Notes: generated from the sequence alone by a model not told the origin. A DNA stretch of 64,000 bases from Burkholderiales bacterium (GCA_016195825.1 JACPYV010000196.1:29019-93018); one strand, 5' to 3'. Positions 935-22,814 are shown, numbered from the stretch's first letter. Made by a program: numbers and translations.

Positions 935-936
935 GG

Positions 937-2052: not shown

Positions 2053-2137
2053 GGGGTCTCCTCCGTGGGCAAAGGGGTCCGCGGCAGCTTACACAATGCC
2101 TGCGCTTGTCCCGTGCGGGAATTCGCCAGGAGGTTTC

Positions 2138-2635: not shown

Positions 2636-2647
2636 GAATCCCGCGCC

Positions 2648-3352: not shown

Positions 3353-3359
3353 ACCTCGC

Positions 3360-3941
3360 ATGCAACACCTGCTCCGCCTGGCCCTGCTCTCCCTGCCGCT
3401 GAACGCGCTCGCCGGCGAGCCGCCGGCCATCGATGCCGCAACCTGGCCGCTGCACAGCTTCCGCTTCTCCCAAAACGCGCTGGCCTGCAAGCTGCCTTCG
3501 CCCGACATCGACTTCGGCTGCCTGCGCATCGGTGAACTCCAGATCGGCACCGACTGGGCCGGCGTGACGGCGCGGTTCGGCGAGCCGTGGAAGCGCGAGG
3601 CCCTGCCCGGCGGCGGCGTGCGCGAAGTGCACCTGATCGACCGCGATGCCGGGCAACGCACCTTCAGCTACTGGGTGCTGGAGAGCCGCGGAGGCAAGCT
3701 CGTCAACGCCCAACTGACCGGCAACCACCCGCCCCAGGACCCGGCCACGGCGCCCGGATTCTCCGGCTTGCGGCTGGGCGACACGGAGGCCAAGGTGCGC
3801 GAACTGCTGGGGCCGCGCTTCAAGGCCGCCCCTGTGCTGGAAATCAGTGGCGTGCTGTGGAACTACGCGCCTTTCTGCTTCTCAATCGAAATCGTCGACG
3901 GCCGTGTCTACTCGCTGCGCGTGCACGACGGCAGCGGCTAA
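3360..3941 (+). CDS. hypothetical exported protein
   Basis: Signal peptide [22 protein letters not shown]; no family recognised. Confidence 0.7.
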
Positions 3942-3988
3942 GCCCGCCAGTGCGCGGGGTCAGCAGCCGCTTTGGGACAATCGAGCCC

Positions 3989-6998: not shown

Positions 6999-7467
6999 CC
7001 GGCACCGCGAGGTGCAGCACCCAGTACTGCTCGTAGCGGCCCGCGGTCGCGACGCAGGCCGCACCGACGTGGATGTAGTCGGGGCGCATCAGCGACTCGC
7101 AATGGGCCTCGCTCGCGAGCCACAGCGCCAGCGCTTGATCCAGGGTCGCGGGGCCGCCGCCGAGCACCTCGCCCCCGCTGGCCATCGGATAGCCCGCCGA
7201 TTGCAGGCGCTGGCGCAAGGTGCCGGCGCGCTGCCCCTGGTGGCTGATTTCACCCCGCTGCCCCAGTTCCAGCGCATAGGCCGAGGCTGACGCGGCCAGG
7301 CGCTCGTCCCAGGCCACGGGCGCCGCGACCGCCTGATGCCGCTGACCGCAGGTGCGCGGCTGCGCACGCACCTGGTTGACCGCCTGCACCACCTCGTCTG
7401 CCGAAGGCTGGCAGGTCTGGGCATGCACGCCGGTGGCGCAGAGCAGGGCGGACAACAGGAGACGCAT
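6970..7467 (-). CDS. CAP/SCP-like domain secreted protein
   Basis: Signal peptide MRLLLSALLCATGVHAQ; NQVRAQPRTCG...PVAWDERLAASASAYALELGQRGEISHQG... CAP fold pattern. ORF extends to 7491. Confidence 0.8.
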   Translation of the reverse strand: MRLLLSALLCATGVHAQTCQPSADEVVQAVNQVRAQPRTCGQRHQAVAAPVAWDERLAASASAYALELGQRGEISHQGQRAGTLRQRLQSAGYPMASGGEVLGGGPATLDQALALWLASEAHCESLMRPDYIHVGAACVATAGRYEQYWVLHLAVPVRSSPDRSP

Positions 7468-7538
7468 CGTGCGGGGGCAAAGAGCAGTCAATTCGGCTGG
7501 GGATTGTCAACTCCCGGCCGTTGGACGACCATGGACCG

Positions 7539-7961
7539 ATGACATCCCACGCCCGCACCCCGCTGCGCATCCCCTTGGCGCTGCCCTTTCTGGCACTGTG
7601 CCTGCTGGGCTGTGCCACGGCCCAGCAAACGCCCGAGAGCGCCGAGCAACTGGCCACGCAGATCCAGGCCCTCGTCGGTGACGCGGCCTGCGACGCTCCG
7701 GCGCAGTGCCGCACCATCGCAGTGGGCGCCAGGGCGTGCGGCGGCCCGGACAGCTATCTGGCCTGGTCGACGCTGCGTACGGACGAAGCGCGCCTGCGCG
7801 AGCTGGTGAAGCGCCACGCCGAGCGCCGGCAGGCCGACAACCGCACCGGCCGGCTGTCCTCCATCTGCGTGATGGCGACCGACCCGGGCGCCAGTTGCCA
7901 GGCACGGCGCTGCACGCTGAACGCATCGGGCTACGGCACGCCACCCGGGCGCGCCGACTGA
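7539..7961 (+). CDS. putative lipoprotein, hypothetical
   Basis: Lipobox LALCLLGCATAQQ; no family recognised. Confidence 0.6.
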   Translation: MTSHARTPLRIPLALPFLALCLLGCATAQQTPESAEQLATQIQALVGDAACDAPAQCRTIAVGARACGGPDSYLAWSTLRTDEARLRELVKRHAERRQADNRTGRLSSICVMATDPGASCQARRCTLNASGYGTPPGRAD

Positions 7962-7977
7962 AGCCGGCGCGCCCCAA

Positions 7978-8011
7978 ACAAAAAGGCCGCAGCACCTGCG
8001 TGCTGCGGCCG
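7978..8011 (-). terminator. Rho-independent terminator downstream of the S8 peptidase gene
   Basis: Inverted repeat ggccgcagca(7985-7994)/tgctgcggcc(8001-8010); poly-A (aaacaaaaa) on + reads as a T-tract on the minus strand. Confidence 0.85.
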
Positions 8012-8052
8012 GGGTTGCGACAGCGAGCCAAAGCCCGCTGTGCGCGATAGCG

Positions 8053-11000
8053 TCAGTCGCCCGCCGGGCTGCCGATCTTGGAGTTGACCGACACCGGCAC
8101 CGGGTCATTGGTGCGCACTTCCATCAGCGTTGTGCCCTGCGGCGTGCCGTTCACCAGGAAGCTGGCCGCGCCGAGATAGCGTTGGCCTGCTGCCAGACCC
8201 GACCAGCTCATGCCCGCTGAGGCCGTGCCGCCGGTGTAGGTCGTCGCGGGTGCCAACGCCTTGAAGTTGCCGCCGGTATCCGAGGTCGTGACGACCCAGC
8301 TGGACATCGTGTAGGTCGTGCTCGGGCGCTTCTGGGTGTCGTACGAGATCGTGCAGACCTTGTAGTTGCCCGCCGGCGGACGAATCATCGTGGCAGTCTC
8401 GTTGGAGCCGCCGTTCAGGCTGCCGGCCACCGCGACGTTGCTCGAGTTCAGCACCAAGATGTCGATGTCGTCCTCGCCGCCCTGGATCTGGCCGCCGGTC
8501 GTCTCCGCGTTGAACAGCTGGAAGCGTGCCACCAGCGTGTTGGCCGGGATGCTCACGGTGCGGACCTTGACGCCCGTGGGCGTGGGCGACGCCGTGCAGA
8601 CCGTCGCGGCCGTGCCGGTGTTGTTGCCCGTCACGGTCTCGGTTGTGCGCGTCGCCGCCTGCAGGCCGCCCTTCTCGACCACGATGGAGCCGGCAAAGCC
8701 GGTGCCGATCGTGAAGATCTTGCTGCCAGCCGTCGCCTCGCTGGTCAGCGCGCCCGGCACGGCCAGCGCGATGCCGCGTGCGGTGAGCGGGCTGCGCACG
8801 TTGTGGGTGCCGTCCGACCAGGTCAGGCTGCCGTAGGCCCAGGTGTCCAGCGGCGCGGTCGTACGGGCCAGGCGCACCGAGTAGCTGGCCTGCGCGCCTG
8901 GCGCCAGCGTCAGCGACGACGGCGTCACCTGCACGTCGAAGCCATCGAGCATGGCGTTGGGCGTGTAAGTGCTGGTGGTCGCGCCGACGTTGGTGACGGT
9001 GCGGGTCAGCGTCTGCACACCCAGCACGCTGCCGGCGGTCAGCGAGGCGAGGTTCAGGTTTTGCGGTGCGATCGAGCCGATCGAGGCGCAGGTGGCGGCC
9101 GAATAGAAGCCCAGGTTCAGGCCGCAGCTGAAGCGTGCGTAGTCCAGCACGCCAGCGTCGTACACCAGGCCCGGATCTGCAGCGGCATTGGGCACCACGT
9201 GACCGGCGCCCTGCGCCCAGGGCAGACGGCCCGAGGCCTTGGCGGTCGGGCTCCAGGGCAGGTCGGCGGTGACACCGTCGTCATAGGTGTCGGTGGCCGT
9301 CGTCATCAGGGCCGACTTGATCATGGCCGGCGTCCAGGTCGGATGCTGCTGCTTCAGCAGCGCGGCCAGGCCGGCGATGTGCGGGCTGGACATCGACGTG
9401 CCGGAGATCATGTTGACGTTGGTCTTGGTCGTTTTGCCACCGCTCTTCAGCGCCGTGACTTCGGCAGCCGTCAGGCTGGCCGCGAACGCCGCCACGATGT
9501 CCACACCGGGCGCCGTGAAGTCGGGCTTCAGGATGCTGTTGTCGGCGACGTTGGGGCCGCGCGACGAGAACCCTGCCATCTGCGGCGCCAGCACGTCGCC
9601 GAAGCGCGTCTGGGCGATGCCCAGCGAAGCCACGGCGTCGACGCCGCTGGCAGCCGCGTAGGCCTTGACGGCATCGCCGTCGGTCTGGCTGATGTGGATG
9701 GTGGGCACCGAATGCACCTCGGACACCAAGCCCCCGCCGTTGTCGGCCAGGATCACGCCGACACCGCCGGCCTGCTTGACGGCCAGGCTCTTGTTGACGC
9801 GGGCGCTAATGCCGCGCGTGCAGATGACGATCTTGCCGGACACCTTGACCGGGTCCAGCGCCACGGTGCCGTCGGCACTGCCGTAGCAGAGGTCGGCCAG
9901 CGCCGGGTTGACGCCCGTGGCGACGGCGTCGGAGGCGCGGATCAGCGACGTCGACGGCACCGGGGTCTGGTTGACCGAGGCCCCGACGTAGTCCACGTTG
10001 CCACCCGTGTGGACCGCGGCGCCGATGGTGCGGCCGTGGGTCGACGCAGCGACCGTCGCATGCCAGGGGCCCAGGTTGGCGGACGGCGCCACGTTGGGCC
10101 CCGAGTTGCCGGCCGAGGCGGCCACGAACACGCCCGCGTTTGAGGCGTTCAGGAAGGCGACTTCGGTGGTCTCGCTGAACGTGCCACCACCGGCCGTCGG
10201 ACCGATGGAGTAGTTGATGACGTCGACACCGTCCTTCACGGCCTGGTTGATGGCCGAGACGCTGTTGCTGTTGGGGCAGCTGCCCTGGCTGGGCGAGATC
10301 GACCAGCAGACTTTGTACATCGCCAGACGGGCACGCGGCGCGATGCCGGACATGTTGCCCATCGGGATGCCATTGATGCTCGCGGCCACGCCGGCGTTGC
10401 CGCCTGCCGTGGATAGGGTGTGCGAGCCATGGCCGCCACCGGCGTCGATCGTGCCGTCACGGCCGGAGTTGAACTCCGCCGCGTTGGCGCCGGCGATCTG
10501 CGTGTACGAGCGGATGCCGATCAGCTTGTTGTTGCAGTTCGAGGCCAGGATGCCCGGCTTGATCTGGCAGCCGATGCCCTTCCACTTGGCAGGCGGCGGG
10601 CCGTAGACCAGCGTGCCGCTGGGGTCGTGCGTGGGCGCGCCATTGGCGTCGACCTTGTCCGCAAAGCTCGTGTCCTCGGGCCAGACGCCGCTGTCGATCA
10701 TCGCGATGATCATGTTCTCGCCCGCGGCACCCACACCGCCCAGTTGGCTGTACAGGCCGCCCGGCTGGTTCAGACCCAGGAAGGTGGGCGTGTAGCTGGT
10801 GTGCAACGTGCTGATCGCGTCGGCTTCGATGTTGAGCACGCCGCTGTTCTTCTTCAGCGCGCGCACTTCGGCGTCGGTCAGGTTGGCGGCAAAGCCGTTC
10901 AGCACCACGTCATAGCGCGCCGTCACGTTGGCCGGGTCGATGGTGGCCAGCACGTCTGACTGCTTCTTGTTCAGATAGGTCAGGTAGGTCTGCACGTTCT

Positions 11001-11205
11001 CGGCGCTGACGTCCAGACGCTGGCCCGGGGCCGGCCGGGTGGCGGGCAGGCCGGCAATCTCGCCGCCGTAGCTGGCTGCAGGTGTGCCGACCAGCTGGAC
11101 GATGTAGGAGCGGCGGACGTCTTGTGCGCTGGCGGTGGCCGCGGCGCCGGACAGAAGCAGCAGGACGGCCAGCGAGGCCGGTGTGAGAGTCTTCTTGGAC
11201 TTCAT
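8053..11205 (-). CDS. S8 family serine peptidase (subtilase with inhibitor I9 and PA domains)
   Basis: 1050 aa; triad motifs MIDSGVWPED, GHGSHTLSTAGGN, ISGTSMSSPHIAGLAALL; signal peptide LLLLSGAAATASAQ. Confidence 0.93.
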   Translation of the reverse strand: MKSKKTLTPASLAVLLLLSGAAATASAQDVRRSYIVQLVGTPAASYGGEIAGLPATRPAPGQRLDVSAENVQTYLTYLNKKQSDVLATIDPANVTARYDVVLNGFAANLTDAEVRALKKNSGVLNIEADAISTLHTSYTPTFLGLNQPGGLYSQLGGVGAAGENMIIAMIDSGVWPEDTSFADKVDANGAPTHDPSGTLVYGPPPAKWKGIGCQIKPGILASNCNNKLIGIRSYTQIAGANAAEFNSGRDGTIDAGGGHGSHTLSTAGGNAGVAASINGIPMGNMSGIAPRARLAMYKVCWSISPSQGSCPNSNSVSAINQAVKDGVDVINYSIGPTAGGGTFSETTEVAFLNASNAGVFVAASAGNSGPNVAPSANLGPWHATVAASTHGRTIGAAVHTGGNVDYVGASVNQTPVPSTSLIRASDAVATGVNPALADLCYGSADGTVALDPVKVSGKIVICTRGISARVNKSLAVKQAGGVGVILADNGGGLVSEVHSVPTIHISQTDGDAVKAYAAASGVDAVASLGIAQTRFGDVLAPQMAGFSSRGPNVADNSILKPDFTAPGVDIVAAFAASLTAAEVTALKSGGKTTKTNVNMISGTSMSSPHIAGLAALLKQQHPTWTPAMIKSALMTTATDTYDDGVTADLPWSPTAKASGRLPWAQGAGHVVPNAAADPGLVYDAGVLDYARFSCGLNLGFYSAATCASIGSIAPQNLNLASLTAGSVLGVQTLTRTVTNVGATTSTYTPNAMLDGFDVQVTPSSLTLAPGAQASYSVRLARTTAPLDTWAYGSLTWSDGTHNVRSPLTARGIALAVPGALTSEATAGSKIFTIGTGFAGSIVVEKGGLQAATRTTETVTGNNTGTAATVCTASPTPTGVKVRTVSIPANTLVARFQLFNAETTGGQIQGGEDDIDILVLNSSNVAVAGSLNGGSNETATMIRPPAGNYKVCTISYDTQKRPSTTYTMSSWVVTTSDTGGNFKALAPATTYTGGTASAGMSWSGLAAGQRYLGAASFLVNGTPQGTTLMEVRTNDPVPVSVNSKIGSPAGD

Positions 11206-11258
11206 GAGGAGTTCCTCTGACTTGCTTGTGGCAATGGGGGGAGGGAAGCGCGGGGCGA

Positions 11259-11939
11259 TCAGACCGACTTGCGGCGACGGCCGGCGGCCAGCAGGCCGGC
11301 CAGGCTCACGCCGACCAGCGCGAGGCTGGCGGGTTCGGGCAGGTAGCCGATGTTGTCCACGGCAAACTGGGCCTGGTTGCCCGCCGGGTTCACACAGTCG
11401 TTGTTGCCGTCGTACAGGCAGCTGGAGATGGTGACCGACTGGAACCAGCCGCTGGCGAAGCTGCTGTCAAAGTCCCAATGGCTGAAGTTGAAGTTGCCCA
11501 GGGCGTCCTGCAGCTCGAAGTCGCGCGAAATCGTCGTGGAGCCGCCGCCAGCATCGAAGCCGGTCACGACCAGCTTGCCGACGCTGAAGTCCAGCACCGC
11601 GCTCAGGGGCAGCAGGAAGCCGAAGTCCAGCCCGGTCATGCTCATGCCGCCTTCGGAGAGCTTGACGTTCAGGCCGCCGTCGTTGAGCGCAGCGTAGAAC
11701 TGCGTGCCATTGCCGCCGGGGCAGATCGCGATGTCGCAGCTGGCGAAGGTCGCGATGGCGCCGTCGAAGATGTTGGTGCCGATGGTCGTGACGACGGCAT
11801 TGCCTTCTGCCGTCACGTCACCACCGGAGAGCACGGCCGGCAGGGCCGAGTCGAAGGTGATGAAGCCGCCACCCGCGAAGGCCGCGGAACAAGCGAGGGT
11901 CGCTGCGAGGGCAAGCGACGAACGGAAATACTTTTTCAT
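11259..11939 (-). CDS. PEP-CTERM sorting domain-containing protein
   Basis: C-terminus LPEPASLALVGVSLAGLLAAGRRRKSV: PEP motif, hydrophobic helix, Arg-rich tail; N-terminal signal MKKYFRSSLALAATLACSAAFA. Confidence 0.88.
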   Translation of the reverse strand: MKKYFRSSLALAATLACSAAFAGGGFITFDSALPAVLSGGDVTAEGNAVVTTIGTNIFDGAIATFASCDIAICPGGNGTQFYAALNDGGLNVKLSEGGMSMTGLDFGFLLPLSAVLDFSVGKLVVTGFDAGGGSTTISRDFELQDALGNFNFSHWDFDSSFASGWFQSVTISSCLYDGNNDCVNPAGNQAQFAVDNIGYLPEPASLALVGVSLAGLLAAGRRRKSV

Positions 11940-12191
11940 GGGGTCCTGTTCACATTCCAAGGGTTGGGGACTGGGCCGAATCCGGCGCGGCGCTACGCGC
12001 TTGCCGAACCCGAGGCTGCGCAATGGGGAAGGCCCCGTGCCCGCGCAAACTTGAATTCCGGCATTCCATAGCAGGAACGCGCGATTTTGGTGAGCTGCGG
12101 CTTGACGACCATCCCCACTTCTCCTCCCCTTCAGGCGAGGGGTTCCAGGGTTATTTCGCGTGACAGGCGCTGCGCAAACGCTGCGAGTGCG

Positions 12192-12719
12192 TTAAGGAGG
12201 TGACGAAGCCGGGCCGCTCGCCGGGCCAGCCACGGCAGCGGCGTTCATCAGGCTGGCCTGGCTGGAGAACACGAGCTCCGAGGCCTTGTGCGCCACGCTG
12301 CCGTCCTGTTGCTTTTCGCGCAACAGCGGCTGGTCGGAGCGACTGCGCACGGCGCTGAAGCGCCCCGGTTGGGCGGGCTCGAGAATCAGCACCCAGTCCG
12401 CCTCCTGCGTGAAGGGGTCCGCATACAAGCGGCGCAGGTGATGGCGGGGTTTGACCCCGCGCCGGTCGACGAGCAGATCCTGCAACTCGCGGGGGTATTC
12501 GGCCGGCGGCACCGGGGTGGCGCGGCTGTAGCTGGCGATGGCGCGCGCTATTTCGGCGCCACGCCACAACAGCTCGGCCTCGCGCTCGCGCTGCGCCGCC
12601 GTGGTCCAGGCCTGGCCCAGCGCGGCCAGCCCGGCCGCCGTCAGGGCGACGAGGAAGAGCACACCCAGATAGGTGAAGCCACTTGGCGGCCGCCACCTGG
12701 CTCGACGCACGTTCACCAC
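12192..12719 (-). CDS. pseudopilin-like protein lacking Glu5 (type II secretion-like)
   Basis: SGFTYLGVLFLVALTAAGLAALGQ prepilin-like N-terminus; overlaps upstream pseudopilin gene. Confidence 0.75.
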   Translation of the reverse strand: MVNVRRARWRPPSGFTYLGVLFLVALTAAGLAALGQAWTTAAQREREAELLWRGAEIARAIASYSRATPVPPAEYPRELQDLLVDRRGVKPRHHLRRLYADPFTQEADWVLILEPAQPGRFSAVRSRSDQPLLREKQQDGSVAHKASELVFSSQASLMNAAAVAGPASGPASSPP

Positions 12720-13108
12720 TCCGCGTACAGACGCCCGTCCGCCGCGCGTCCGGCGGCGCCACTGCGCACGTCCCAGACCTGGCCGGCGGCCTGCATGTCG
12801 GACGGCGGCGCAACCACCACCCAGCCCTCCCGACCACCGTTGATTGGGTCCTCAGGAACTTCGCGGATGTAGCGCAGGGCAGCCAGCTCCTCCAGCGAAT
12901 CCGGGTAGCGCCCCTTGTCGGCGGCAAACTGGTCGATCGCGTCGCGCATCACCTGCAACGAGGCATGCAGGGCGGTCTCGCGCGAGCGCTGCAAGCTGTT
13001 GAAATAACGCGGCGCTGCGATGGAGGCCAGCAAGGCCACGATGGCCATGACGACGATCAGCTCGATCAGCGTGAAGCCGCGGCGGCGGGCAGATGGGGTG
13101 GTCCTCAC
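12713..13108 (-). CDS. prepilin-type protein, GspG/GspH-like pseudopilin
   Basis: RRGFTLIELIVVMAIVALLASIAAPRYF; DQFAADKGRYPDSLEEL...PEDPINGG. Confidence 0.9.
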   Translation of the reverse strand: MRTTPSARRRGFTLIELIVVMAIVALLASIAAPRYFNSLQRSRETALHASLQVMRDAIDQFAADKGRYPDSLEELAALRYIREVPEDPINGGREGWVVVAPPSDMQAAGQVWDVRSGAAGRAADGRLYAEW

Positions 13109-13123
13109 GGGTGTCCCTTGGCT

Positions 13124-13600
13124 TCACCAGTCGTGCAGAAGGCTGCCGTCCAGCGCACGCCGATCCGAGCGCGAGAAGACGTCGAACACGTCGCGTCCTG
13201 CGCGCGGCGCGTCCGGCGGGCTGTCATAGGCGCGCAGCCCCCAGCTCTCGTCGGCGGGGAGCCCGACGTCCGCGAAGGGATCGCGCGGCAACCGGCGCAG
13301 GAAGTAGATCCGACGCCCGTCCACCGACTTCGCATCCTTGACGCCGTCCACCAGCACGCGCAGATTGGGCGGATATCCGCTGTCATCCACGCCCAGCACG
13401 ATGTTGCCCGACTCGACCGCGCGCTTGTAGGCATCGATGGCACCCCGCAGGCCGCGCAGCGCGGCGCGCAGCTCGGTCTCCCGGACCCGCTGGACGGACA
13501 GCTCCAGCAGCGGGCGCGCCGCGCTGGCCAGCACCGCCAGCATGGCCAGCACCACCAGCATCTCGATCAGCGTGAAGCCCCGGCTGCGCATCGCTGGCAC
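13124..13600 (-). CDS. prepilin-type pseudopilin
   Basis: SRGFTLIEMLVVLAMLAVLASAARPLL; YPPNLRVLVDGV...LRRLPRDPFAD. Confidence 0.88.
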   Translation of the reverse strand: MPAMRSRGFTLIEMLVVLAMLAVLASAARPLLELSVQRVRETELRAALRGLRGAIDAYKRAVESGNIVLGVDDSGYPPNLRVLVDGVKDAKSVDGRRIYFLRRLPRDPFADVGLPADESWGLRAYDSPPDAPRAGRDVFDVFSRSDRRALDGSLLHDW

Positions 13601-13606
13601 GGCGCG

Positions 13607-15757
13607 TCAGCGCGCCGCCTCGACGCTGATCAGGCCGCTGCCCTCCATGCGCACGGACGCGGTCTCGCCGTTCAGGCCATTGGCCGACAGCGACGACACG
13701 TTGATCTGCGTGACGCCTGCCCCAGGCAGCGCCCGGAACACGATGACCCGCTCGCCGCGCGGCAGCAGTTCGAGCGGTACCCGGCCTGGCGTGGCACCGG
13801 GCTGGTTCTGCGCCAGTTGCAGGCGGGCGGGGTCGTATTCCAGCTCGCCCTTGATCGACAGCGGGCTGTCGCTCTTCAGGCTGACCGAGACCGCGCCACC
13901 CGCACTCGCTTGCGCCGTCACGTCGAGCTTGACCGTGGCCTCGCTCGGCATGGGTGTCGCGGCGCGCGGCGTGGCCGACGCGTCGCTGGATGGCGCCACA
14001 CCCACCCTGGCATCGCGCCGCAGCAGGCTGCTGAATGCGCCGGGGCTGGCGTCCGTGCCGCTGGCCAGGCGCGTCAGCGAGGCGTCCGGCACGGCGAGGT
14101 TGCGCACCACGCGCGGCGTGATCAGCAGCACCACCTCGGTCTTGTTGCGCGTGTCGGTCTGGGTGCCGAACAGCCGGCCCAGCACGGGGATGCGCGACAG
14201 GCCCGGGATACCGACCGCGCTCTTGCGGTCCTCGTCGTTGATAAGGCCGGCCAGCACCTGGGTCTCGCCGTCGGCCAGGCGCAGCACAGTGGAGGTGTTG
14301 CGCGTGCCGATCTCGTAGGCCGTGGTGCCGCCGGGGCCGGTGACCTGGCGGATCAGGTTGCTGACCTCCAGGCCCACCTTGATGACGACATCGTTGTCGA
14401 GCTGAATGGTGGGCTCGACGTCCAGCTTCAGGCCGATGTCCAGGTAGCTGACCGACGCGGCCACCGACGTGGAGCCGGTGAAGTTGGTAGTGGTCGTGAA
14501 GACTGGCAGCTTCTGGCCGATGTGGACCTTGGCCTTGTCGCGGCTGCGCACGCGGATCTTGGGGTTGGCCAGGATGTTGGAGTTGCCGGCCGTGCCGCGG
14601 ATGTTGGCGATGACGGCGGGGTTGGCGATGCTGGCGCGGAACTGGTCGCGCTGACTCAGCAGCACCTGCCCCACCGCGCCCGGTAGGCCGTATTGCACCG
14701 CCTCGGGCCACTGCAGGCCCAACGCGTCGACCTGGTCGGTGGCCAGCTCCATCACCTCCACTTCGAGCATGACCTCGGGCTCGGGCAGGTCGACGGACGC
14801 GATCAGCTTCTCCACCAGCCGCAGCACCTCGGGCGTGTCGCGCACCACCAGCAGGTTGAGCCGCTCGTCGATGTGGATGTCGCGCACCTTGGCGATGGTG
14901 CGCACCATCGCCTGCACCTGCTTCACGTCGGCGTTGGTCAGGTACAGCGTACGGGTGACCAGCTCCTGGTGCTCGCGCTGCTTGGCGGCCGTGTTCGGGA
15001 ACACCAGCACCGAAGTCTCGTTGAGCAGCTTGCGGTCCAGCTGCTGGGTGCCGAGGATGACGCGCATGGCCTCGTCCATCGTCACGCCGCGCAGAAAGAC
15101 GGTCACGCGCGCGTCGGCACGCACGTCCTTGTCGAACACGAAGTTGACGCCGCTGGAACGCGCCAGCGCCTCGAACACCTGGCGCAGCGGCGCGTCGCGG
15201 AACTCCAGCGTCACCGGCTTCTGAAAGGCCGGGCCCAGCTCGCCGACTGCGGCCTCCAGCGGCCGGGCCTGCGCCACCTGGCTGGCGAGCAGCCGGGCGC
15301 CCGGGTGCTGGGGCGACTCGGCCAGGATCTCGCGCGCGACCGCATCGGCGCGCTCGATGCGGCCCTCCTTCAGCGCCGCACGGCCGGTGGCCAGCTGCGC
15401 CTCGTGGCGGCGGCCGCGCTCGATGTCGACGCTCAGCGCGGCCAGGCGCGGGTGCTTGGCGTCGGCCAGCGCCAACTGGCTCAGCAGGGCCGAGGCCTCG
15501 TCCCAGCGGCCCGCACCGCGCAGCGCTTCGATCTGCAGGATCAGCCGTGCGGTGGCCTGCTCGCGGGCGCGCACCTGGGCGGCACGCAGCTGCGCGTCGG
15601 TCGGGTCCTTGGCGAGCGCGTCGTCCAGCACGCGCAGCGCGGCCGGCCATTGGTTGGTGCGGCCCAGGTCTTCGGCCTGGCGCAGCGCGGGGTTGGCGCA
15701 GGCCGTCAGCAGCGCGGTCAGCAGCGCAACGAGGGCCAGGGCGGGGAGCTGCTTCAT
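13607..15757 (-). CDS. gspD: secretin (GspD/PilQ-like) with apparent cohesin-like C-terminal domain
   Basis: Lipobox LLTALLTACANPALRQ; STN-like VTLEFRDAPLRQVFEALARSSGVNFVFD; secretin core EVSNLIRQVTGPGGTTAYEIGTRNTSTVLRLADGETQVLAGLINDEDRKS...VVLLITPRVV; extra Ser/Val/Gly-rich beta-type tail. Confidence 0.88.
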   Translation of the reverse strand: MKQLPALALVALLTALLTACANPALRQAEDLGRTNQWPAALRVLDDALAKDPTDAQLRAAQVRAREQATARLILQIEALRGAGRWDEASALLSQLALADAKHPRLAALSVDIERGRRHEAQLATGRAALKEGRIERADAVAREILAESPQHPGARLLASQVAQARPLEAAVGELGPAFQKPVTLEFRDAPLRQVFEALARSSGVNFVFDKDVRADARVTVFLRGVTMDEAMRVILGTQQLDRKLLNETSVLVFPNTAAKQREHQELVTRTLYLTNADVKQVQAMVRTIAKVRDIHIDERLNLLVVRDTPEVLRLVEKLIASVDLPEPEVMLEVEVMELATDQVDALGLQWPEAVQYGLPGAVGQVLLSQRDQFRASIANPAVIANIRGTAGNSNILANPKIRVRSRDKAKVHIGQKLPVFTTTTNFTGSTSVAASVSYLDIGLKLDVEPTIQLDNDVVIKVGLEVSNLIRQVTGPGGTTAYEIGTRNTSTVLRLADGETQVLAGLINDEDRKSAVGIPGLSRIPVLGRLFGTQTDTRNKTEVVLLITPRVVRNLAVPDASLTRLASGTDASPGAFSSLLRRDARVGVAPSSDASATPRAATPMPSEATVKLDVTAQASAGGAVSVSLKSDSPLSIKGELEYDPARLQLAQNQPGATPGRVPLELLPRGERVIVFRALPGAGVTQINVSSLSANGLNGETASVRMEGSGLISVEAAR

Positions 15758-16338
15758 GGCGTGGCTTTGAAAACGAGGTTCTGGGGGATCCTGGCCGGCA
15801 GCCAAGTCAAGCTGACGCCGCTGGTCGACACCTGCTCGACGCGCCACTGGCCATCGATGACGTCACCGCGCCTGACGCTGAGGGCGCTGCCCGGGCCGGT
15901 CAGCAGCGCGACCTCGACGGCCTTGCCGCCCTCGCCTTCGACGACGCGGCCGATCATCTGGTACGGCAACGGCGGCGCCGCCGGCGGCGGTGGGGGTGCA
16001 GCTGCCGTGGGTGGCGGTGCGGGCGGCGGGGGTGGGGGCGGCGGCGGTTGCCAGGCCGCGAGCTGGGCGGGCGAGACCTCGGCCCAGGGCTGTCGGACAT
16101 CGCCGGGTTGAATGACTTGGGCGACTTGGGCGGCCTGTGCGGCTGGATGCGACTCGGATGCCGATGCCGATGCCGCGGGCGCGGCCGGGCGCACCGCGGC
16201 AACCACTGGCGCCGCCGTGTCGTCAGGCCGCGTGGCGACCCAGGCCGTGGCGGCCAACGTCGCGACGAGAGCGCCGCCGAGGGCGAGCTGGCGCGGCTTG
16301 ATCGGGCTCAAGGCGCGGCCCTCCCATGCAGCGACCAC
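15754..16338 (-). CDS. GspC/PilP-like inner-membrane protein with polyproline linker
   Basis: Single TM (LALGGALVATLAATAWVA), Pro-rich linker, C-terminal YQMIGRVVEGEGGKAVEVALLTGPGSALSVRRGDVIDGQWRVEQV (PilP/GspC HR-like). Start uncertain. Confidence 0.6.
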   Translation of the reverse strand: MVAAWEGRALSPIKPRQLALGGALVATLAATAWVATRPDDTAAPVVAAVRPAAPAASASASESHPAAQAAQVAQVIQPGDVRQPWAEVSPAQLAAWQPPPPPPPPPAPPPTAAAPPPPPAAPPLPYQMIGRVVEGEGGKAVEVALLTGPGSALSVRRGDVIDGQWRVEQVSTSGVSLTWLPARIPQNLVFKATP

Positions 16339-16820
16339 TGCAGCTCGGCATCGACATCGCTGCTCACCGGGCTGACGCGGCGCAGCTTGATGGCGTCCAG
16401 ACTCAGCGCCGGGTCGTGCGCAAGCGCAGCACCGATGAAGCGGCGCAGCTGCGCGTAGTTGCCCGTCAGCGGCATGGTCACGCGCAGCCGCTCCAGGCCC
16501 TCGCTGGTGGACAGCCGGTGCTCGGTGCGCGCGCCGTTCAGGTCAAGGCGTATGCCCAGCTCCAGCAGGTCGGCCAGGCGCTGCTGGCGGTCACGAGGCG
16601 AAGGCAGCGCGGCCTGCCACTGCTGCACGCTGACGGGCACCGTCGGGGCCAGCGCCGCCGGACTGGCCTTGCTGCGCAGCGCGCGGGCTTCGGCCTGCAG
16701 CGCGGCGGCCTGCGCATCCCAGCGCTTGCCGGCAAAGCTGGCAACCAGCGCGAGCAGCAGCGCCGCGAGGCCGGCGAGGCCCGGCCAGCCGAGGGCCTTC
16801 AGGAGCGCCTGGGGCTTCAT
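16308..16820 (-). CDS. GspM/PilO-like protein
   Basis: N-terminal TM, coiled region, LRVTMPLTGNYAQLRRFIGAAL pattern as in PilO/GspM; position in operon. Confidence 0.65.
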   Translation of the reverse strand: MKPQALLKALGWPGLAGLAALLLALVASFAGKRWDAQAAALQAEARALRSKASPAALAPTVPVSVQQWQAALPSPRDRQQRLADLLELGIRLDLNGARTEHRLSTSEGLERLRVTMPLTGNYAQLRRFIGAALAHDPALSLDAIKLRRVSPVSSDVDAELQWSLHGRAAP

Positions 16821-17950
16821 GACCCACCTCCGGTCGGCACGCGGGCGCTGATCTCGAAGCGCTGGCCAGTCAGCCCCGTCTCGGCGGCCGAGAAGCGCGA
16901 CAGCACCACCTGGCCCCAGCCCGGCGTGGCTCCCAGCTGCTCGGCCAGTTGCAAGGCCAGCAGCTTGTCCGGCGTCAGCCCCTCCAGGCGCAGCTCGCCG
17001 CGGCCGGCGCTGGCGTCCAAGCCCAACCAGGCGATGGTCCTGGCATCGGCGCCCACTGTCTCGACACGGGTCAGCAGCGGCTCCCAGGGCATGGCCAGCA
17101 GTGCGCGCGCCTCGGCGGCTGAGCGGTTCTCCGCAGCGGCTGCAGCCGTCTGGCGCGGCGGGGCCTTGGCGGCCGGGCGCAGTTGGGCCACGCGGTCGCG
17201 CGCGGCCTGGGCGGCGTCCAACCCGCGATGGCTGTCGACGGCGCTCCAGGCGGCCGTGGCCAGCACCAGGGCACCGGTCGCGGCCAGCGGCCAGGCCAGC
17301 GGCGAGCGGGCCGAACGCGGCAGGAAGTCGGACTGCGGCGTGGCCGGGCCGGGCTGGGGCAAGAGCTGGCCGTCGGGAGTGCCGACAGCCAACGGCATGT
17401 CCAGTCCCAGGTCGGCCAGGTGTTGCAGGCGGCGCGACTGCAGGCCGGTCACCCGGCCGCGGTCCAGCTGGATGACCACGGCCACACCCGCCTCATGCCA
17501 GACCGCGCGCCCGGACGCCGACCGCGTGGCCGCGGGCAGCGACGCCAGCCACGCTGCCCAGGCCGGCCGCACGGCGGCGAGATGCACACGCGCGGCCTGG
17601 GCTTGCGCACGCAGGCCGGCCAAGTCCAGGCCATGCAGCGCAGAGGCGCCGGCGGCCTCGCCCAGCTGCCAGGGCGCGATCGCGAAGCGCTGCGCGGCAC
17701 CGCCGAAATAGTGGGCGAACTGCTGCTGGGCGTAGGCCTGCACGGCGTCCAGGCCCGCCAGCGGCAGGCCGGGCTCCACCACCATCTCATGCAGCGCACG
17801 CGCACTGACGACCAGCTCCACGGCCGTGCCGGGGCATTCGCGGCACCAGGCCTCGAACTCCGCCCCACCCGGTGTGACGAACAGCGGCCGCGGCTTGGCG
17901 AGCCGCGCGGCGATCTGCTGCCTCAAGCGCTCACTCATCGAGGGTGACAC
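16817..17950 (-). CDS. GspL/PilM-PilN-like assembly protein
   Basis: Soluble N-domain, one TM (SPLAWPLAATGALVLATAAWSAV), C-terminal periplasmic domain; overlaps gspE and the PilO-like gene. Confidence 0.55.
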   Translation of the reverse strand: MSPSMSERLRQQIAARLAKPRPLFVTPGGAEFEAWCRECPGTAVELVVSARALHEMVVEPGLPLAGLDAVQAYAQQQFAHYFGGAAQRFAIAPWQLGEAAGASALHGLDLAGLRAQAQAARVHLAAVRPAWAAWLASLPAATRSASGRAVWHEAGVAVVIQLDRGRVTGLQSRRLQHLADLGLDMPLAVGTPDGQLLPQPGPATPQSDFLPRSARSPLAWPLAATGALVLATAAWSAVDSHRGLDAAQAARDRVAQLRPAAKAPPRQTAAAAAENRSAAEARALLAMPWEPLLTRVETVGADARTIAWLGLDASAGRGELRLEGLTPDKLLALQLAEQLGATPGWGQVVLSRFSAAETGLTGQRFEISARVPTGGGS

Positions 17951-19442
17951 GTTCCAGCTCCTCGAAGGTGGTATCGCCGCGGCACACGGCCGCCAGCGCC
18001 ATCTCGCGCAACGACTTCATGCCGCGCGCCTTGGCCGCGGCCTTGATCTCAGACATGGGCGCACGCGCCGCGATCAGGTCGCGCAGGCCGTCGTCGAGCT
18101 TGAGCAGCTCCGCCACCGCGCGCCGGCCCTTGTAGCCCGTGCCGCGGCAGTGGCCGCAGCCCTCACCCTTCATGAAATTGCCGTTCATCACCGCGTGACG
18201 TGCGAGCGTCGCGTCGTCGGGCGTGAACGGCTGCGCGCAGTGCTTGCAGGTCAGCCTCACCAGGCGCTGCGCCAGCACGGCGTTCAGCGCGGACACGACG
18301 TTGTACAGGTCCAGCCCCATATGCATGAAGCGGCCGATGACGTCGAACGCGTTGTTCGCGTGCACGGTGCTGAACACCAGGTGGCCCGTCAGCGCGGCCT
18401 GCACGGCGATCTGCGCGGTCTCGGCGTCGCGGATCTCGCCGACCATCACACGGTCGGGGTCGTGGCGCAGGATGGAGCGCAGGCCGCGCGAGAAGGTCAG
18501 GCCCTTCTTCTCGTTGACGGGGATCTGCACGACGCCAGCGAGCTGGTACTCGACCGGGTCTTCGATGGTGATGATCTTGTCGGCGCCGGTGTGGATCTCG
18601 GCCAGCGTCGCGTACAGCGTGGTGGTCTTGCCGGAGCCGGTCGGGCCGGTCACCAGCAGCATGCCGTGAGGCTGGCGGGCCTGGTGGCGGATGGCGGCGC
18701 GCTCCTCGTCGCCGAAGCCGAGCGCGTCCAGCGTCAGCGACCCGGCGCGTGTGATGGCCGCCCGGTCGAGGATGCGAATGACGGCGTCTTCGCCGAACAC
18801 ACTGGGCATCACGCTGAGGCGGAAGTCGATCTCGCGGCCTTGCACGCGCAGCTTGAAGCGGCCGTCCTGCGGCAGCCGGCGCTCGCCAATGTCCAGCTCG
18901 GCCATGACCTTGAGGCGCGACACCAGCTGCTCGGCGACCTGCGGGCTGTCGACCTGCCGCACCAGGGCCATCACGCCGTCGACGCGGAAGCGGATCACGG
19001 CGCCGCGGGCCGTGCATTCGATGTGGATGTCGGACGCGGTGTCCTGCAGCGCGTCGTAGATCGTCGCGTTGAGCAGCCGCACAACCGGGCTGGCCTGTTC
19101 GCTGAGCGCCAGCGCCGACAACTCCTCGGTGTGGTCCTCCACGGCCGCCAGCGCGTCTTCGACGTCGGACAGCGCGCGGAAATCGGCCTCGCCGGCACCG
19201 AGAAAATGCGTCACCGCCTCGGGCGCGCAGCGCTGCCAGCCGACGGGGGCGTTGAGGCGCGACTCGACGCTCTGCAGCAGCATGGCGTCCTCGTCGCGCT
19301 CGGCCAGCAGCACGCGCCTGCCGTCGGCGCCGATGGCCAGCACCGCGCGCCAGCGCTGGGCCTGAGCCTGCGGCCATTGCTCGAAATCCAGATGCCAGGG
19401 GCCGTGCTCGGCCGGCAGCCAGTCGCTCAGCGTCGTGCTCAT
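17931..19442 (-). CDS. gspE: type II secretion ATPase GspE/PulE family
   Basis: Walker A VTGPTGSGKTTTLYATL, ITIEDPVEYQLAGVVQIPVNEKKGLTFSRGLRSILRHDPDRVMVGEIRD, zinc motif CKHC..CGHC. Confidence 0.96.
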   Translation of the reverse strand: MSTTLSDWLPAEHGPWHLDFEQWPQAQAQRWRAVLAIGADGRRVLLAERDEDAMLLQSVESRLNAPVGWQRCAPEAVTHFLGAGEADFRALSDVEDALAAVEDHTEELSALALSEQASPVVRLLNATIYDALQDTASDIHIECTARGAVIRFRVDGVMALVRQVDSPQVAEQLVSRLKVMAELDIGERRLPQDGRFKLRVQGREIDFRLSVMPSVFGEDAVIRILDRAAITRAGSLTLDALGFGDEERAAIRHQARQPHGMLLVTGPTGSGKTTTLYATLAEIHTGADKIITIEDPVEYQLAGVVQIPVNEKKGLTFSRGLRSILRHDPDRVMVGEIRDAETAQIAVQAALTGHLVFSTVHANNAFDVIGRFMHMGLDLYNVVSALNAVLAQRLVRLTCKHCAQPFTPDDATLARHAVMNGNFMKGEGCGHCRGTGYKGRRAVAELLKLDDGLRDLIAARAPMSEIKAAAKARGMKSLREMALAAVCRGDTTFEELERVTLDE

Positions 19443-20644
19443 TGCACCTGCTCTACCAACTGGAAGATCGGCAAGTACATCAACACGATGATCCCGCCGA
19501 TCAGTACGCCCATGATGAGCATCAGCGCCGGGTTCACCAGGCGCGACAGCAAGTCGGTCAGCCGCGCCGCTTCCTCGTCATGGAAAGCGGCGGCGCGCTC
19601 CAGCATGGCCGCAACCTCGCCGCTGCGCTCGCCCACGCGCAGCATGCGGCGCGCGACCGGCGTGGCCAGGTCCTGCGCGTCGAAGGCGGTGGACAGGCGC
19701 TCGCCGCGCTCGATCTGCGCCGCCGCGGCCCGGACGGCATCTCGCCACGGCGCCGCGACGACGTCGACGACGATGCGCAGGCCGCTGAGTGCAGGCACGC
19801 CCGATGCCAGCAGCATGGCCAGCGAGCGGTACAGCCGCGCCAGCGCCAGCACGCGCAGCCGCGGCCCCAGGCCCGGCAGCGTCCAAAGCGCCGCCTGCGC
19901 ACGCCGGCGCACGGCTGGCTGGCGAAGCAGCGTGAAGACGCCCAAGCCCACAACTGCAATGCCGCCGATGACCAGGCCCGGATGCGCCCCGGCCGTCTGG
20001 CCGAACTCGATCAGCACGCGCGACGCCCAGGGCAGGTCGGCACTGGTCTGCTCCAGGATGCCGGCGAAGCGCGGCAGCACATAGAGCAGCAGGAACAGGA
20101 TGACCAGCGAGCCCACGCCCAGCAGCATCAGTGGGTAGACCAGTGCGGCGACGAGGCGCGAGCGCAGCGCGTCCACCCAGCCCAGGTAGCGCGCATGCTG
20201 GGCCAGCGCGGTGGACAACTGGCCGGTGCGCTCGTTGGCCGCGACGATGGCGCAGATCAGCTCGTCAAACGCCTGCGGCTGCTGGCGCAGCGCGACGGAC
20301 AGTGGCTGGCCCTGCTCGATCCGGGCGATGACCGCGTCCAGCGCCGCGCGCACACCAGGCTGGCCTTCCTTCTCGCGCAGCGTGTTCAGCGCCTCCAGCA
20401 GCGCGATGCCGGCGTCCAGCAGCACGGCCAGCTCCTGACTGAAGAGCTGCAGCGGGAAGCGCGTGCTGCGGCGCCAGGGGCGGGCCGATTCCCGCGCGGC
20501 GACTTCGCGCACCTCCAGCACATGCTGAGGCGGCACACCCAGCACCGCGGCCACGGCGGCGCGGTCGGGCGCCTCCACGCGCTCGGTGCTGACGGCGCCG
20601 GCGCGCAGCACGCGGGTCTGGAACTGCGGCACTGTCAGTGTCAC
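19439..20644 (-). CDS. gspF: type II secretion inner-membrane protein GspF
   Basis: FSQELAVLLDAGIALLEAL, MLRVGERSGEVAAMLERAAAFHDEEAARLTDLLSRLVNPALMLIMGVLIGGII. Confidence 0.95.
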   Translation of the reverse strand: MTLTVPQFQTRVLRAGAVSTERVEAPDRAAVAAVLGVPPQHVLEVREVAARESARPWRRSTRFPLQLFSQELAVLLDAGIALLEALNTLREKEGQPGVRAALDAVIARIEQGQPLSVALRQQPQAFDELICAIVAANERTGQLSTALAQHARYLGWVDALRSRLVAALVYPLMLLGVGSLVILFLLLYVLPRFAGILEQTSADLPWASRVLIEFGQTAGAHPGLVIGGIAVVGLGVFTLLRQPAVRRRAQAALWTLPGLGPRLRVLALARLYRSLAMLLASGVPALSGLRIVVDVVAAPWRDAVRAAAAQIERGERLSTAFDAQDLATPVARRMLRVGERSGEVAAMLERAAAFHDEEAARLTDLLSRLVNPALMLIMGVLIGGIIVLMYLPIFQLVEQVQ

Positions 20645-21057
20645 CAGGAGGTGAGGTCGGCGTCCTCACCCTCGCCGCCAGGGCGGCCGTCCTTGCCGAA
20701 CGACAGCAGGTCGTACTCGCCATGCTCGCCCGGCGAGCGATATTGGTAGTCGTTGCCCCAGGGGTCCTTGGGCACCGCCTTGGAGAGATATGGTCCGGCC
20801 CACTTGGGCTCGTCAGCCGGCTTGGCAACCAGCACGGCCAGGCCTTGTTCGGTGCTGGGGTAGCGGCCCACGTCCAGCCGGTACTGGTCCAGCGACTTCT
20901 GCAGCGCATCGATCTGCGCCCGTGTCGCCTTGACCTCGCTCTTGCCAATCTGGCCGAAGAACTTCGGACCGACGTAGCCGGCCAGCAGGCCGATGATGAC
21001 CATGACGACAAGCAGTTCGAGCAGCGTAAAGCCGCGGGAGCGGGACAAAGGGAACAT
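20641..21057 (-). CDS. gspG: major pseudopilin GspG
   Basis: SRGFTLLELLVVMVIIGLLAGYVGPKFFGQIGKSEVKATRAQIDALQKSLDQYRLDVGRYPSTEQGLAVL...PKDPWGNDYQYRSPGEHGEYDLLSFGKDG. ORF extends to 21135. Confidence 0.96.
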   Translation of the reverse strand: MFPLSRSRGFTLLELLVVMVIIGLLAGYVGPKFFGQIGKSEVKATRAQIDALQKSLDQYRLDVGRYPSTEQGLAVLVAKPADEPKWAGPYLSKAVPKDPWGNDYQYRSPGEHGEYDLLSFGKDGRPGGEGEDADLTSW

Positions 21058-21162
21058 GGCGGGGCGGGGTACAGCGGGAGCGCGACTGTTCATCGGCGGG
21101 CGAAGCCCGGCAATCGGGATTTGACCGCCCCGCATTCTCAGGGTCCGGCCATGACGGGCCGG

Positions 21163-22578
21163 TCAAGGGGACTGGGCCAGGGTGCAGCTGTTGCTCGCGT
21201 TGTCGGCGCAGGGGCCTTGCCAGCGGATCTGCACGGCGGCGGCCGGCGGCAGCGGCGCTCGGCCATCCAGCGCCTGGCCGCGCACGCCGGTGAAGTCGGC
21301 CAGCGTGGTCCAGGTGCTGCCGCCAGACAGTCGGTATTGCAGCAAATAGCGGCTGCCGGGGCGCAAGGATCGGGTCTTGATCTGGTACTCGCCCGCCACG
21401 ATGGCGAAGCCGGGCGCGTCACGGAAGGGCTGGGCCAACGGCTCGCCGACGAACAGGCCCTGGCCCGGCCACTGCACGGCCTTCCAGTAGGCCTCGATGG
21501 CGGTCGCGCCGCGCCAGTACTGGTCGACCAGCACCGACGCGCGGGAGAACTTCTGCTGGAAGTTGCAGGGCTCTTCCACCGTGCCGTAACTGGCCGTCGC
21601 GCCGGCGTCCAGCCAGGCGGTGATGGGCATTTGGCCACCGCCGCCCGGCAAATTGCCGCCAGTGGAGGTCAGCGTGTCGGCCAACGCGCCGGGGCGGAAC
21701 TGGATCGTCGACAGGTTGGTGACGCTGACCAGGCCGGTCAGATAGAACAGCACGTCGCTCTTGGCCGACAACGAATTGGCGGCGGGCAGACCAGTGCTGT
21801 TGTCGACATAGTTCAGCGCCAGCACGCCGGCCCAGGCGGCGGGCAACGTGGCGAAGTCGGTCCAGCGCACGTTGCGGTCGGTGTCGGTCGTGCGCACCAG
21901 CCATCCGTCCCCCGCAGGCCGGGTCGCGTCAGCGGCCACGCCGCGGTTGATCAGCGCCTTGGCGGCGTCCAGCGTGCGGGCGCCCAGCAGCATGGACGGG
22001 CGCAGCTGCAGATCGGCCTGGGGCCGGCGTGACTCGCTGTCGTAAAGCGGCGACGCCGCCGTGCTCGGGCAGGCACCGGTCGACGGGTTGGGGTTGCAGT
22101 AGCGCGTGTCGAAACCCAGCGCCATCGCGCTGGTGATGCCCATGTTGCAAGCCCCCACAACGCGGCTGGGCGCGCCCCAGGTCAGCAAAGTGGCCTGGGC
22201 AGCGGGCGCCGCGGCAGCCAATTTTGCGTCGATGTCGGCTTTCAGCAACAGGAAGTCGGCCGACGTGATGGTCTCGCTGGCCGTGTTCACCTTGACCCGG
22301 ATCAGGTTCGTAGCCGGCACGCCACGCGCCGCCAGGTAGGCCGCGCCCACTGCCTCGCTGAGCGCGTCGCCCTCGGCCACGACGACCGCCAGATCGGCCG
22401 GCGAAAGGCCGCTGGCGGGCAGCGTCAAAGTCAGCGTCTGCCCTATGCCACCAGCCCCTGTGCTGCCCCCGCTGCCGCCCCCGCCGCTGGTGGTGTCAGC
22501 ACCGCCTCCGCCCCCCCCGCCGCAGGCGCTCAGCAGGGTCAGCAACAGCGGCATAAACAGGCGGGTGGAGAGGGGCAT
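21163..22578 (-). CDS. TIGR03790-like lipoprotein
   Basis: Lipobox LLTLLSACGGGGGGG; DLAVVVAEGDALSEAVGAAYLAARGVPATNLIRV...LTWGAPSRVVGACNMGITSAMALGFDTRYC...; family assigned from memory of this pattern. Confidence 0.75.
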   Translation of the reverse strand: MPLSTRLFMPLLLTLLSACGGGGGGGADTTSGGGGSGGSTGAGGIGQTLTLTLPASGLSPADLAVVVAEGDALSEAVGAAYLAARGVPATNLIRVKVNTASETITSADFLLLKADIDAKLAAAAPAAQATLLTWGAPSRVVGACNMGITSAMALGFDTRYCNPNPSTGACPSTAASPLYDSESRRPQADLQLRPSMLLGARTLDAAKALINRGVAADATRPAGDGWLVRTTDTDRNVRWTDFATLPAAWAGVLALNYVDNSTGLPAANSLSAKSDVLFYLTGLVSVTNLSTIQFRPGALADTLTSTGGNLPGGGGQMPITAWLDAGATASYGTVEEPCNFQQKFSRASVLVDQYWRGATAIEAYWKAVQWPGQGLFVGEPLAQPFRDAPGFAIVAGEYQIKTRSLRPGSRYLLQYRLSGGSTWTTLADFTGVRGQALDGRAPLPPAAAVQIRWQGPCADNASNSCTLAQSP

Positions 22579-22814
22579 GCGGATCATTTTCCTCGGGGTT
22601 TTGACACCCAATTCGCACCATTTCGGGGCGCTCATGCCCTTTCGTGCCCCACGAACCCGGGCTTACCCCAGTTTCATGCACCGTGGCGGGGCAATACATT
22701 CTCGTCACTCGACGCGGTTCCGGACTCCGGTCTCGGGCCGCCGGGCGGGTTGTGAGGAGACAAGACAAGCGACAAGCGCAAAAGGTTGCTTCGTAACCCC
22801 GAAGACAATCACAC

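What the first reader, a model, noticed from the sequence alone, without database searches (positions are those of the whole stretch)
8053..22578. TIGR03790 / type II secretion-like / PEP-CTERM / S8 subtilase gene cluster
Minus strand, in order: TIGR03790-like lipoprotein, gspG, gspF, gspE, GspL-like, PilO/GspM-like, GspC/PilP-like, secretin, two E5-containing pseudopilins and one atypical pseudopilin, then a PEP-CTERM protein and a subtilase ending at a clear terminator. Most secretion genes from gspG down overlap by ATGA or a few bases, so they look co-translated. Established knowledge (from memory): TIGR03790 was described as occurring only in genomes that encode exosortase, so its proximity to a PEP-CTERM protein is meaningful. 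Recognisable GspH/I/J set and a prepilin peptidase are missing, so this is not a standard T2SS. Inference: a dedicated secretion/surface-assembly machine whose cargo may include the PEP-CTERM protein or the subtilase.
Basis: partly seen in the sequence, partly recalled or inferred. Interest (0 to 1): 0.75.

Follow-up and report, generated by a model that had tools for sequence, protein, structure and literature searches.

The report
Cargo-swapping secretion machine beside a subtilase
This bacterium carries three copies of a compact type II secretion-like machine, widespread in its order but scarcely studied, and the copy in the window sits next to its probable exported cargo (a protein-cutting enzyme and a surface-tagged protein); in relatives the same machine sits next to quite different exported proteins.

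Summary
The genes are as described: TIGR03790 lipoprotein, G-F-E-L-M-C-D and three small pseudopilins, then a PEP-CTERM protein and an S8 subtilase ending at a strong terminator. The core is neither canonical T2SS nor MSHA pilus: its ATPases form a separate, fully supported clade, and its secretin is a TPR-bearing lipoprotein with one N1 domain and a C-terminal domain predicted with high confidence to be cohesin-like. The genome holds two more copies, a canonical T2SS, type IV pilus genes, two exosortases and one prepilin peptidase. The machine is in 138 of 399 Burkholderiales genomes, and the exported-protein genes beside it vary: PEP-CTERM plus subtilase (21 of 33 window-type loci), PEP-CTERM plus two-partner-secretion haemagglutinin, RHS/TIG/FG-GAP proteins, an M4 metallopeptidase. 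Best reading: a modular machine serving neighbouring exoproteins, here most probably the subtilase. TIGR03790 is a lineage-specific addition (9 of 54 complete loci) that tracks exosortase rather than the machine. The 'unorthodox T2SS' of Ralstonia solanacearum is probably the same kind (published gene order; sequence not tested). New variant of a known kind; the cohesin-like secretin end is the most interesting part. No export was shown.

The parts
21163..22587 (-). TIGR03790-family lipoprotein (lineage-specific passenger or accessory)
   Evidence: TIGR03790 172.4 bits, cut-off 67; present in only 9 of 54 complete loci
20641..21057 (-). gspG, major pseudopilin (E5 present; ORF can start at 21135)
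   Evidence: TIGR01710 185.3 bits, PF08334
19439..20644 (-). gspF-like inner-membrane platform protein
   Evidence: PF00482 172.6 bits; TIGR02120 258 (below cut-off 424)
17931..19442 (-). gspE-like assembly ATPase
   Evidence: PF00437 434.8 bits; TIGR02533 501 (below cut-off 630); own clade in tree
16817..17950 (-). GspL/PilN-like protein (predicted start 17938)
   Evidence: weak PilN hit at the C-terminus (E 0.027), position in operon
16308..16820 (-). GspM/PilO-like protein
   Evidence: T2SSM_b 17.4 bits (E 0.004), position; a plasmid homologue is annotated GspMb/PilO
15754..16338 (-). GspC/PilP-like protein
   Evidence: TIGR03021 25.5 bits, GspC_delta 19 bits, both below cut-off
13607..15757 (-). 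secretin lipoprotein: TPR, STN, one Secretin_N, secretin barrel, C-terminal cohesin-like domain
   Evidence: PF00263 133.9 bits, TPR_19, STN, Secretin_N; lipobox LLTAC in the sequence
13610..13945 (-). cohesin-like C-terminal domain of the secretin
   Evidence: AF2 pLDDT 95.2; Foldseek top 8 PDB hits all cohesins, E 1.4e-6 to 6e-5, TM 0.73-0.80
13124..13591 (-). minor pseudopilin 1 (E5 present)
   Evidence: N_methyl 33.5 bits
12713..13108 (-). minor pseudopilin 2 (E5 present)
   Evidence: N_methyl 37.2 bits, T2SSG 19.6 bits just below its cut-off
12192..12719 (-). minor pseudopilin 3 without E5 (GFTYLG); GspK-like tip candidate
   Evidence: no family hit; E5 absent in all 56 relatives in which the motif could be read
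11259..11939 (-). NF038120-family PEP-CTERM protein
   Evidence: NF038120 168.8 bits (cut-off 80), PF07589
8053..11205 (-). S8 subtilase (I9 propeptide, PA, fn3_6), proposed main cargo
   Evidence: PF00082 140.5 bits etc.
7985..8010 (-). intrinsic terminator after the subtilase gene
   Evidence: 11-pair stem, TTTTTG tail

Best explanation
A compact type II secretion-like machine of the type IV filament superfamily. Inferred steps: the inner-membrane platform (F with L, M, C) and ATPase E assemble a short pseudopilus of GspG, tipped by pp1-pp2-pp3 (pp3, without E5, taking the GspK place); the prepilins are matured by the genome's only detected prepilin peptidase, encoded elsewhere beside pilBC. 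The secretin is itself a lipoprotein, so it may reach the outer membrane without a pilotin, and its cohesin-like end may serve as a docking surface. The machine exports folded periplasmic exoproteins encoded next to it. Here the main cargo is most probably the S8 subtilase. The PEP-CTERM protein is the subtilase's surface partner, anchor or substrate and is processed by an exosortase; it may or may not use the same exit. TIGR03790 is a lineage-specific accessory. Shown: gene content, order, conservation, phylogenetic separateness, predicted fold. Not shown: secretion, cargo identity, any interaction.
For: Same core order in some 60 loci and, as two more paralogues, in the same genome. E, F, D and three small pseudopilins with a full-length GspG. 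ATPase clade of 21 rows at 100/100 with a long stem, apart from canonical GspE, PilB, TfpB and MSHA ATPases. PEP-CTERM + S8A downstream in most window-type loci (S8A in 21 of 33 with enough sequence; spacing between the two median 32 bases; duplicated in tandem in L082). Some S8 gene near 27 of 58 loci against about 2 expected from the genome's 10 S8 genes. Other loci carry other exported proteins: S8 with Gly-rich tail, PEP-CTERM, TpsB and a 4143-aa haemagglutinin, FG-GAP/RHS, RHS, M4 metallopeptidase immediately upstream, an 1865-aa protein immediately upstream of gspG, TIG + RHS.
Against: No secretion data were found for any member. Twelve of 33 window-type loci lack the S8A gene at the site, so either cargo is encoded elsewhere or the link is loose. 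PEP-CTERM + S8 starts 252 bases after pp3 and may be a separate transcript. Neighbour statistics treat related loci as independent, and most loci come from one family-level group. No dockerin-like partner was found for the cohesin-like domain.
Confidence: 0.62

Rival explanations
1. It is an adhesive or biofilm pilus related to MSHA, not a protein exporter; neighbouring surface proteins are co-regulated matrix components.
For: The ATPase clade is sister to the MSHA ATPases (support 90/92; sister locus shown to be MSHA by MshL 272.5 bits over cut-off 250.2). The secretin has one N1 domain and is a lipoprotein, as in MSHA. One relative (G107) lies about 7 kb from an exosortase and polysaccharide genes, and one alphaproteobacterial relative beside polysaccharide genes.
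Against: No MshM, MshN or MshO-Q genes in the operon; a GspG with complete T2SSG domain; only short pseudopilins; the secretin scores 105 bits for MshL (cut-off 250); the recurring neighbours include secreted peptidases.
Confidence: 0.2
2. The machine secretes something encoded elsewhere, and the PEP-CTERM + S8 pair is an independent neighbour unit that merely stayed linked.
For: The pair has its own 252-base leader and is missing at 12 of 33 window-type loci; some relatives carry further S8 genes nearby (L070, L076, L083).
Against: The linkage is much denser than the S8 background (27 of 58 against about 2) and S8 genes recur, of a different subfamily and orientation, next to a different paralogue of the machine.
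Confidence: 0.13
3. One reading: a PEP-CTERM/exosortase-dedicated export machine, with TIGR03790 as a functional part.
For: PEP-CTERM genes adjoin both main subtypes; subtype B also has an EpsA-like regulator (TIGR03020 151.7 bits, just under cut-off 170) known from exosortase loci; machine and exosortase co-occur more than chance in the class (6 of 8 against 85 of 274, p = 0.012).
Against: Core machines without a detected exosortase in the genome (G006, G172) and beside cargo without PEP-CTERM; TIGR03790 in only 9 of 54 complete loci.
Confidence: 0.05

Closest known systems
Unorthodox T2SSs of Ralstonia solanacearum (seven core genes; PMC5080846, citing Genin and Boucher 2004)
   Same: Reduced gene set; for one of them the paper mentions four hypothetical genes between gspE and gspD, the place of L, M and C here
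   Different: Sequence relationship not tested (record not in the collections); cargo not described in the passage read
Canonical T2SS (GspC-O)
   Same: GspG, GspF-like, GspE-like, secretin, L/M/C-like platform, exported peptidases as likely cargo
   Different: F, E and D below equivalog cut-offs; a single N1 domain in the secretin; TPR and cohesin-like additions; three minor pseudopilins instead of H-I-J-K; no prepilin peptidase in the operon; the genome has a separate canonical system
Geobacter Pul/Oxp atypical T2SS (secretes OmpB; PMC3543383, citing Mehta et al. 2006)
   Same: Atypical T2SS with extra pseudopilins (PulG, OxpG, TklG) and a dedicated exoprotein
   Different: Not compared by sequence here
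MSHA pilus
   Same: Sister ATPase; lipoprotein secretin with one N1 domain; no own prepilin peptidase (noted for MSH in PMC6668835)
   Different: No MshM/N/O/P/Q; has a full GspG

Membership tests
TIGR03790 family | score above curated cut-off 67 | tested here: met
   172.4 bits over 309 residues
Canonical T2SS | GspG with T2SSG domain and E5 | tested here: met
   185.3 bits (cut-off 88.85), PF08334
Canonical T2SS | GspE, GspF and GspD above equivalog cut-offs | tested here: not met
   501/630, 258/424, 161/351; the genome's canonical GspE scores 684.7
Canonical T2SS | GspE in the canonical GspE clade | tested here: not met
   separate clade of 21 rows, 100/100
Canonical T2SS | full minor set GspH, I, J, K | tested here: not met
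   three small pseudopilins, none reaching the H/I/J/K cut-offs
Canonical T2SS | GspD with N0-N1-N2-N3 | tested here: not met
   Pfam finds STN and one Secretin_N only; the full protein was not modelled
Canonical T2SS | secretes folded periplasmic proteins | not testable with these tools
   needs mutants and exoproteomes
MSHA pilus | MshL above cut-off | tested here: not met
   104.8 bits, cut-off 250.2
MSHA pilus | ATPase groups with MSHA ATPases | tested here: inconclusive
   sister, not member, 90/92
Type IVa pilus | PilB/PilQ above cut-off | tested here: not met
   PilB 456/676, PilQ 175/284
Unorthodox T2SS of Ralstonia solanacearum | sequence homology of E, F and D | not tested
   record not in the collections; only published gene order compared
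Cohesin domain (secretin C-terminus) | cohesin fold | tested here: met
   prediction pLDDT 95; top 8 PDB matches are cohesins, TM 0.73-0.80
Cohesin domain (secretin C-terminus) | Pfam PF00963 match | tested here: inconclusive
   1 of 32 members at E 0.067; distant homologues are annotated 'cohesin domain-containing protein' in RefSeq
Cohesin domain (secretin C-terminus) | dockerin partner | tested here: not met
   no dockerin hit in the neighbouring proteins scanned
PEP-CTERM / exosortase system | PEP-CTERM tail and exosortase in the genome | tested here: met
   NF038120 168.8 bits; two exosortases at 245 and 148 bits

The most novel reading that the evidence does not exclude
The machine is a distinct branch of secretion system in which a ring of cohesin-like domains on the outer-membrane secretin selects or holds its dedicated cargo, so that one machine type has been re-used for many unrelated exoproteins by swapping the neighbouring genes.
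Probability: 0.2. Interest if true: 0.75.

Novelty: new variant of a known kind. Interest (0 to 1): 0.52.

Why it matters
A third of the sampled Burkholderiales genomes carry this machine (up to three copies here), its parts carry only generic database names, and no experiment was found for it in the papers searched. If it is a cargo-dedicated exporter, the gene next to it predicts its substrate, which makes the old problem of how T2SS-type machines recognise substrates testable by comparing paralogues in one cell. The predicted cohesin-like domain on a secretin would be a concrete candidate for such recognition. It also corrects the lead from TIGR03790: that gene tracks exosortase, not this machine.

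Tried and rejected
Sigma-54 site upstream of the PEP-CTERM gene (RpoN dependence is known for a floc-forming relative): none conserved in 21 loci. GlyGly-CTERM on subtype B subtilases: visible by eye (Gly-rich, hydrophobic, Arg tail) but TIGR03501 did not appear even at E 0.5, so not claimed; a rhombosortase is present. TIGR03790 fold, to look for a peptidase-like domain: model unusable, pLDDT 43.6. Sequence search of the secretin end against PDB: nothing useful. A regular-expression search for S8 motifs was too strict and was replaced by phmmer. Ralstonia GMI1000 megaplasmid not in the collections. My gene caller is trained on this window and misses genes in genomes of other composition, so absence of neighbours there is not used. 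No paper in the library held names TIGR03790.

Full report
What is there. The window lies on contig C50 of a 6.0 Mb, 207-contig draft genome. On its minus strand, from 22587 down to 12192, are a TIGR03790 lipoprotein and ten genes of a type IV filament type machine, in the order G, F, E, L-like, M-like, C-like, secretin (D), pp1, pp2, pp3. Gaps between neighbours from pp3 to G are -31 to +15 bases. After a 252-base gap come a PEP-CTERM protein of family NF038120 (168.8 bits, cut-off 80) and, 53 bases on, an S8 subtilase with propeptide, PA and fn3_6 domains. A strong terminator follows at 8010-7985.

Genome context. The genome has two exosortases, one detected prepilin peptidase, next to pilB and pilC, and a rhombosortase. 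It has six secretins. Reading around them shows a canonical T2SS fragment D-E-F at a contig edge (its GspE is over the curated cut-off), type IV pilus genes, another pilus-like system, and, besides the window, two more clusters with the same gene order as the window: contig C94 (L015) and contig C88 (L014). A second TIGR03790 gene stands apart on contig C173. The window's PEP-CTERM gene is the only NF038120 member over cut-off; some 34 further weak hits cover mainly the PEP-CTERM tail of other proteins.

Spread. A search with the secretin alignment in named genomes gave 80 loci, nearly all Burkholderiales, mostly Roseateles, Pelomonas, Paucibacter and Aquabacterium. The core order is the same throughout. 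Across evenly drawn genomes the machine is found in 138 of 399 of the order (62 of 159 genera) and 8 of 274 of the class. Two main subtypes appear. In the window subtype, NF038120 + S8A follow pp3: S8A is found in 21 of 33 loci that hold enough downstream sequence. In subtype B (own contig C94, most Aquabacterium loci and second copies in Roseateles-type genomes) the core is followed by an EpsA-like LuxR regulator, PEP-CTERM proteins, a conserved 480-aa protein, a ShlB-type transporter and a very large haemagglutinin-like protein (4143 aa here, TPS domain and DUF3739), then ExbB/ExbD/TonB-like genes; Roseateles-type members also have a divergent S8 subtilase upstream of gspG. Annotated plasmid records show the same core genes (in some with G or F-E moved) beside FG-GAP and RHS proteins, RHS and a 1340-aa protein, SdrD-like and OmpA-like proteins, an M4 metallopeptidase, an 1865-aa protein and TIG + RHS proteins. 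The neighbours change; the core does not.

TIGR03790. It precedes gspG in only 10 of the 80 loci, 9 of 54 complete ones, all of one Pelomonas-like lineage. Across 274 class genomes it goes with exosortase (27 of 31 genomes; p about 1e-11) but barely with this machine (3 of 8, p = 0.05). The recalled statement that it occurs only with exosortase is thus nearly right (four exceptions, some in incomplete genomes), but its proximity to the PEP-CTERM gene here is a local event. Its fold could not be predicted.

Is the subtilase more than a chance neighbour? The genome has 10 S8 genes in 6.0 Mb, so about 0.036 of 22-kb stretches should hold one; 27 of 58 long loci do. The loci are related and the background comes from one genome, so the tiny binomial p-value is not to be taken at face value. 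Better evidence is that the pair is kept as a unit (median spacing 32 bases), is duplicated as a unit in L082, and that a different S8 subfamily, in the other orientation, adjoins the other subtype.

What kind of machine. The ATPases of 10 genomes and selected relatives give a tree in which this system's 21 rows form one clade (100/100) on a long stem, apart from canonical GspE, PilB and TfpB; its sister (90/92) is the MSHA ATPase group. The window copy is nested beside subtype B, so the paralogues arose within this system. F, E and the secretin lie below every equivalog cut-off. pp3 lacks E5 in all 56 relatives where the motif was readable, while G, pp1 and pp2 have it; that is the pattern of GspK and suggests, by inference, the tip subunit. 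The secretin has a lipobox, TPRs, one STN and one Secretin_N. Its last 112 residues are conserved in nearly all of the 80 loci and are predicted at pLDDT 95 as a domain whose eight best PDB matches are all cohesins. RefSeq annotates two distant homologues as cohesin domain-containing. The third paralogue (L014) lacks it, and so do some distant relatives, so it is not needed for the machine as such. No dockerin was seen nearby.

Interpretation. The best single reading is a secretion machine of T2SS type with dedicated, exchangeable neighbouring cargo; the subtilase is the likeliest cargo at this locus, and the PEP-CTERM protein its partner at the surface. Everything after gene content, order, phylogeny and predicted fold is inference. 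The main rival is a pilus of MSHA kinship. The published 'unorthodox' T2SSs of Ralstonia solanacearum, with seven core genes and, for one, hypothetical genes between gspE and gspD (PMC5080846), probably belong here, which lowers the novelty; the comparison rests on published gene order, not sequence. The Geobacter Pul/Oxp system, which secretes OmpB (PMC3543383), is a plausible functional parallel.

Scores. New variant of a known kind. Interest 0.52: widespread, with only generic names, a testable cargo prediction and an unusual secretin, but no biochemical support and a probable published relative.

Noticed in passing
L015 (C94) 5017-19901 and L143 693-17978: Second paralogue of the machine followed by EpsA-like regulator, PEP-CTERM proteins, 480-aa protein, ShlB-type transporter, a 4143-aa TPS protein, ExbB with DUF2341/LamG, two ExbD and a TonB-like gene: a large conserved assembly, possibly one surface-adhesin system.
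   Followed up: partly
L014 (C88) 1456-9846: Third paralogue, with a short secretin tail lacking the cohesin-like domain; next to it a 1714-aa FtsK/HerA-type protein on the other strand.
   Followed up: partly
L178 (genome G107) 1-19901: Subtype B cluster lies about 7 kb from a second exosortase gene and polysaccharide genes, tying this subtype to an exosortase locus.
   Followed up: partly
L017 (C173) 10148-11419: Orphan second TIGR03790 gene directly beside genes that look like squalene/phytoene synthases and an amine oxidase (hopanoid or carotenoid type).
   Followed up: no
L015 2897-4879: The divergent S8 gene of the own genome ends without the Gly-rich C-terminal tail that its relatives carry; possibly a frameshift near the end or assembly error.
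   Followed up: no
L101, L107, L110, L118 upstream of gspG: S8 subtilases end in a Gly-rich, hydrophobic, Arg-rich tail like GlyGly-CTERM, not scored by TIGR03501.
   Followed up: partly
window 6970-7467: Small CAP-domain secreted protein gene near the subtilase, same strand, after the terminator.
   Followed up: no
L210 (Aliiroseovarius crassostreae plasmid) 1265-10479: Alphaproteobacterial relative of the machine with its own A24 prepilin peptidase, next to polysaccharide genes.
   Followed up: no
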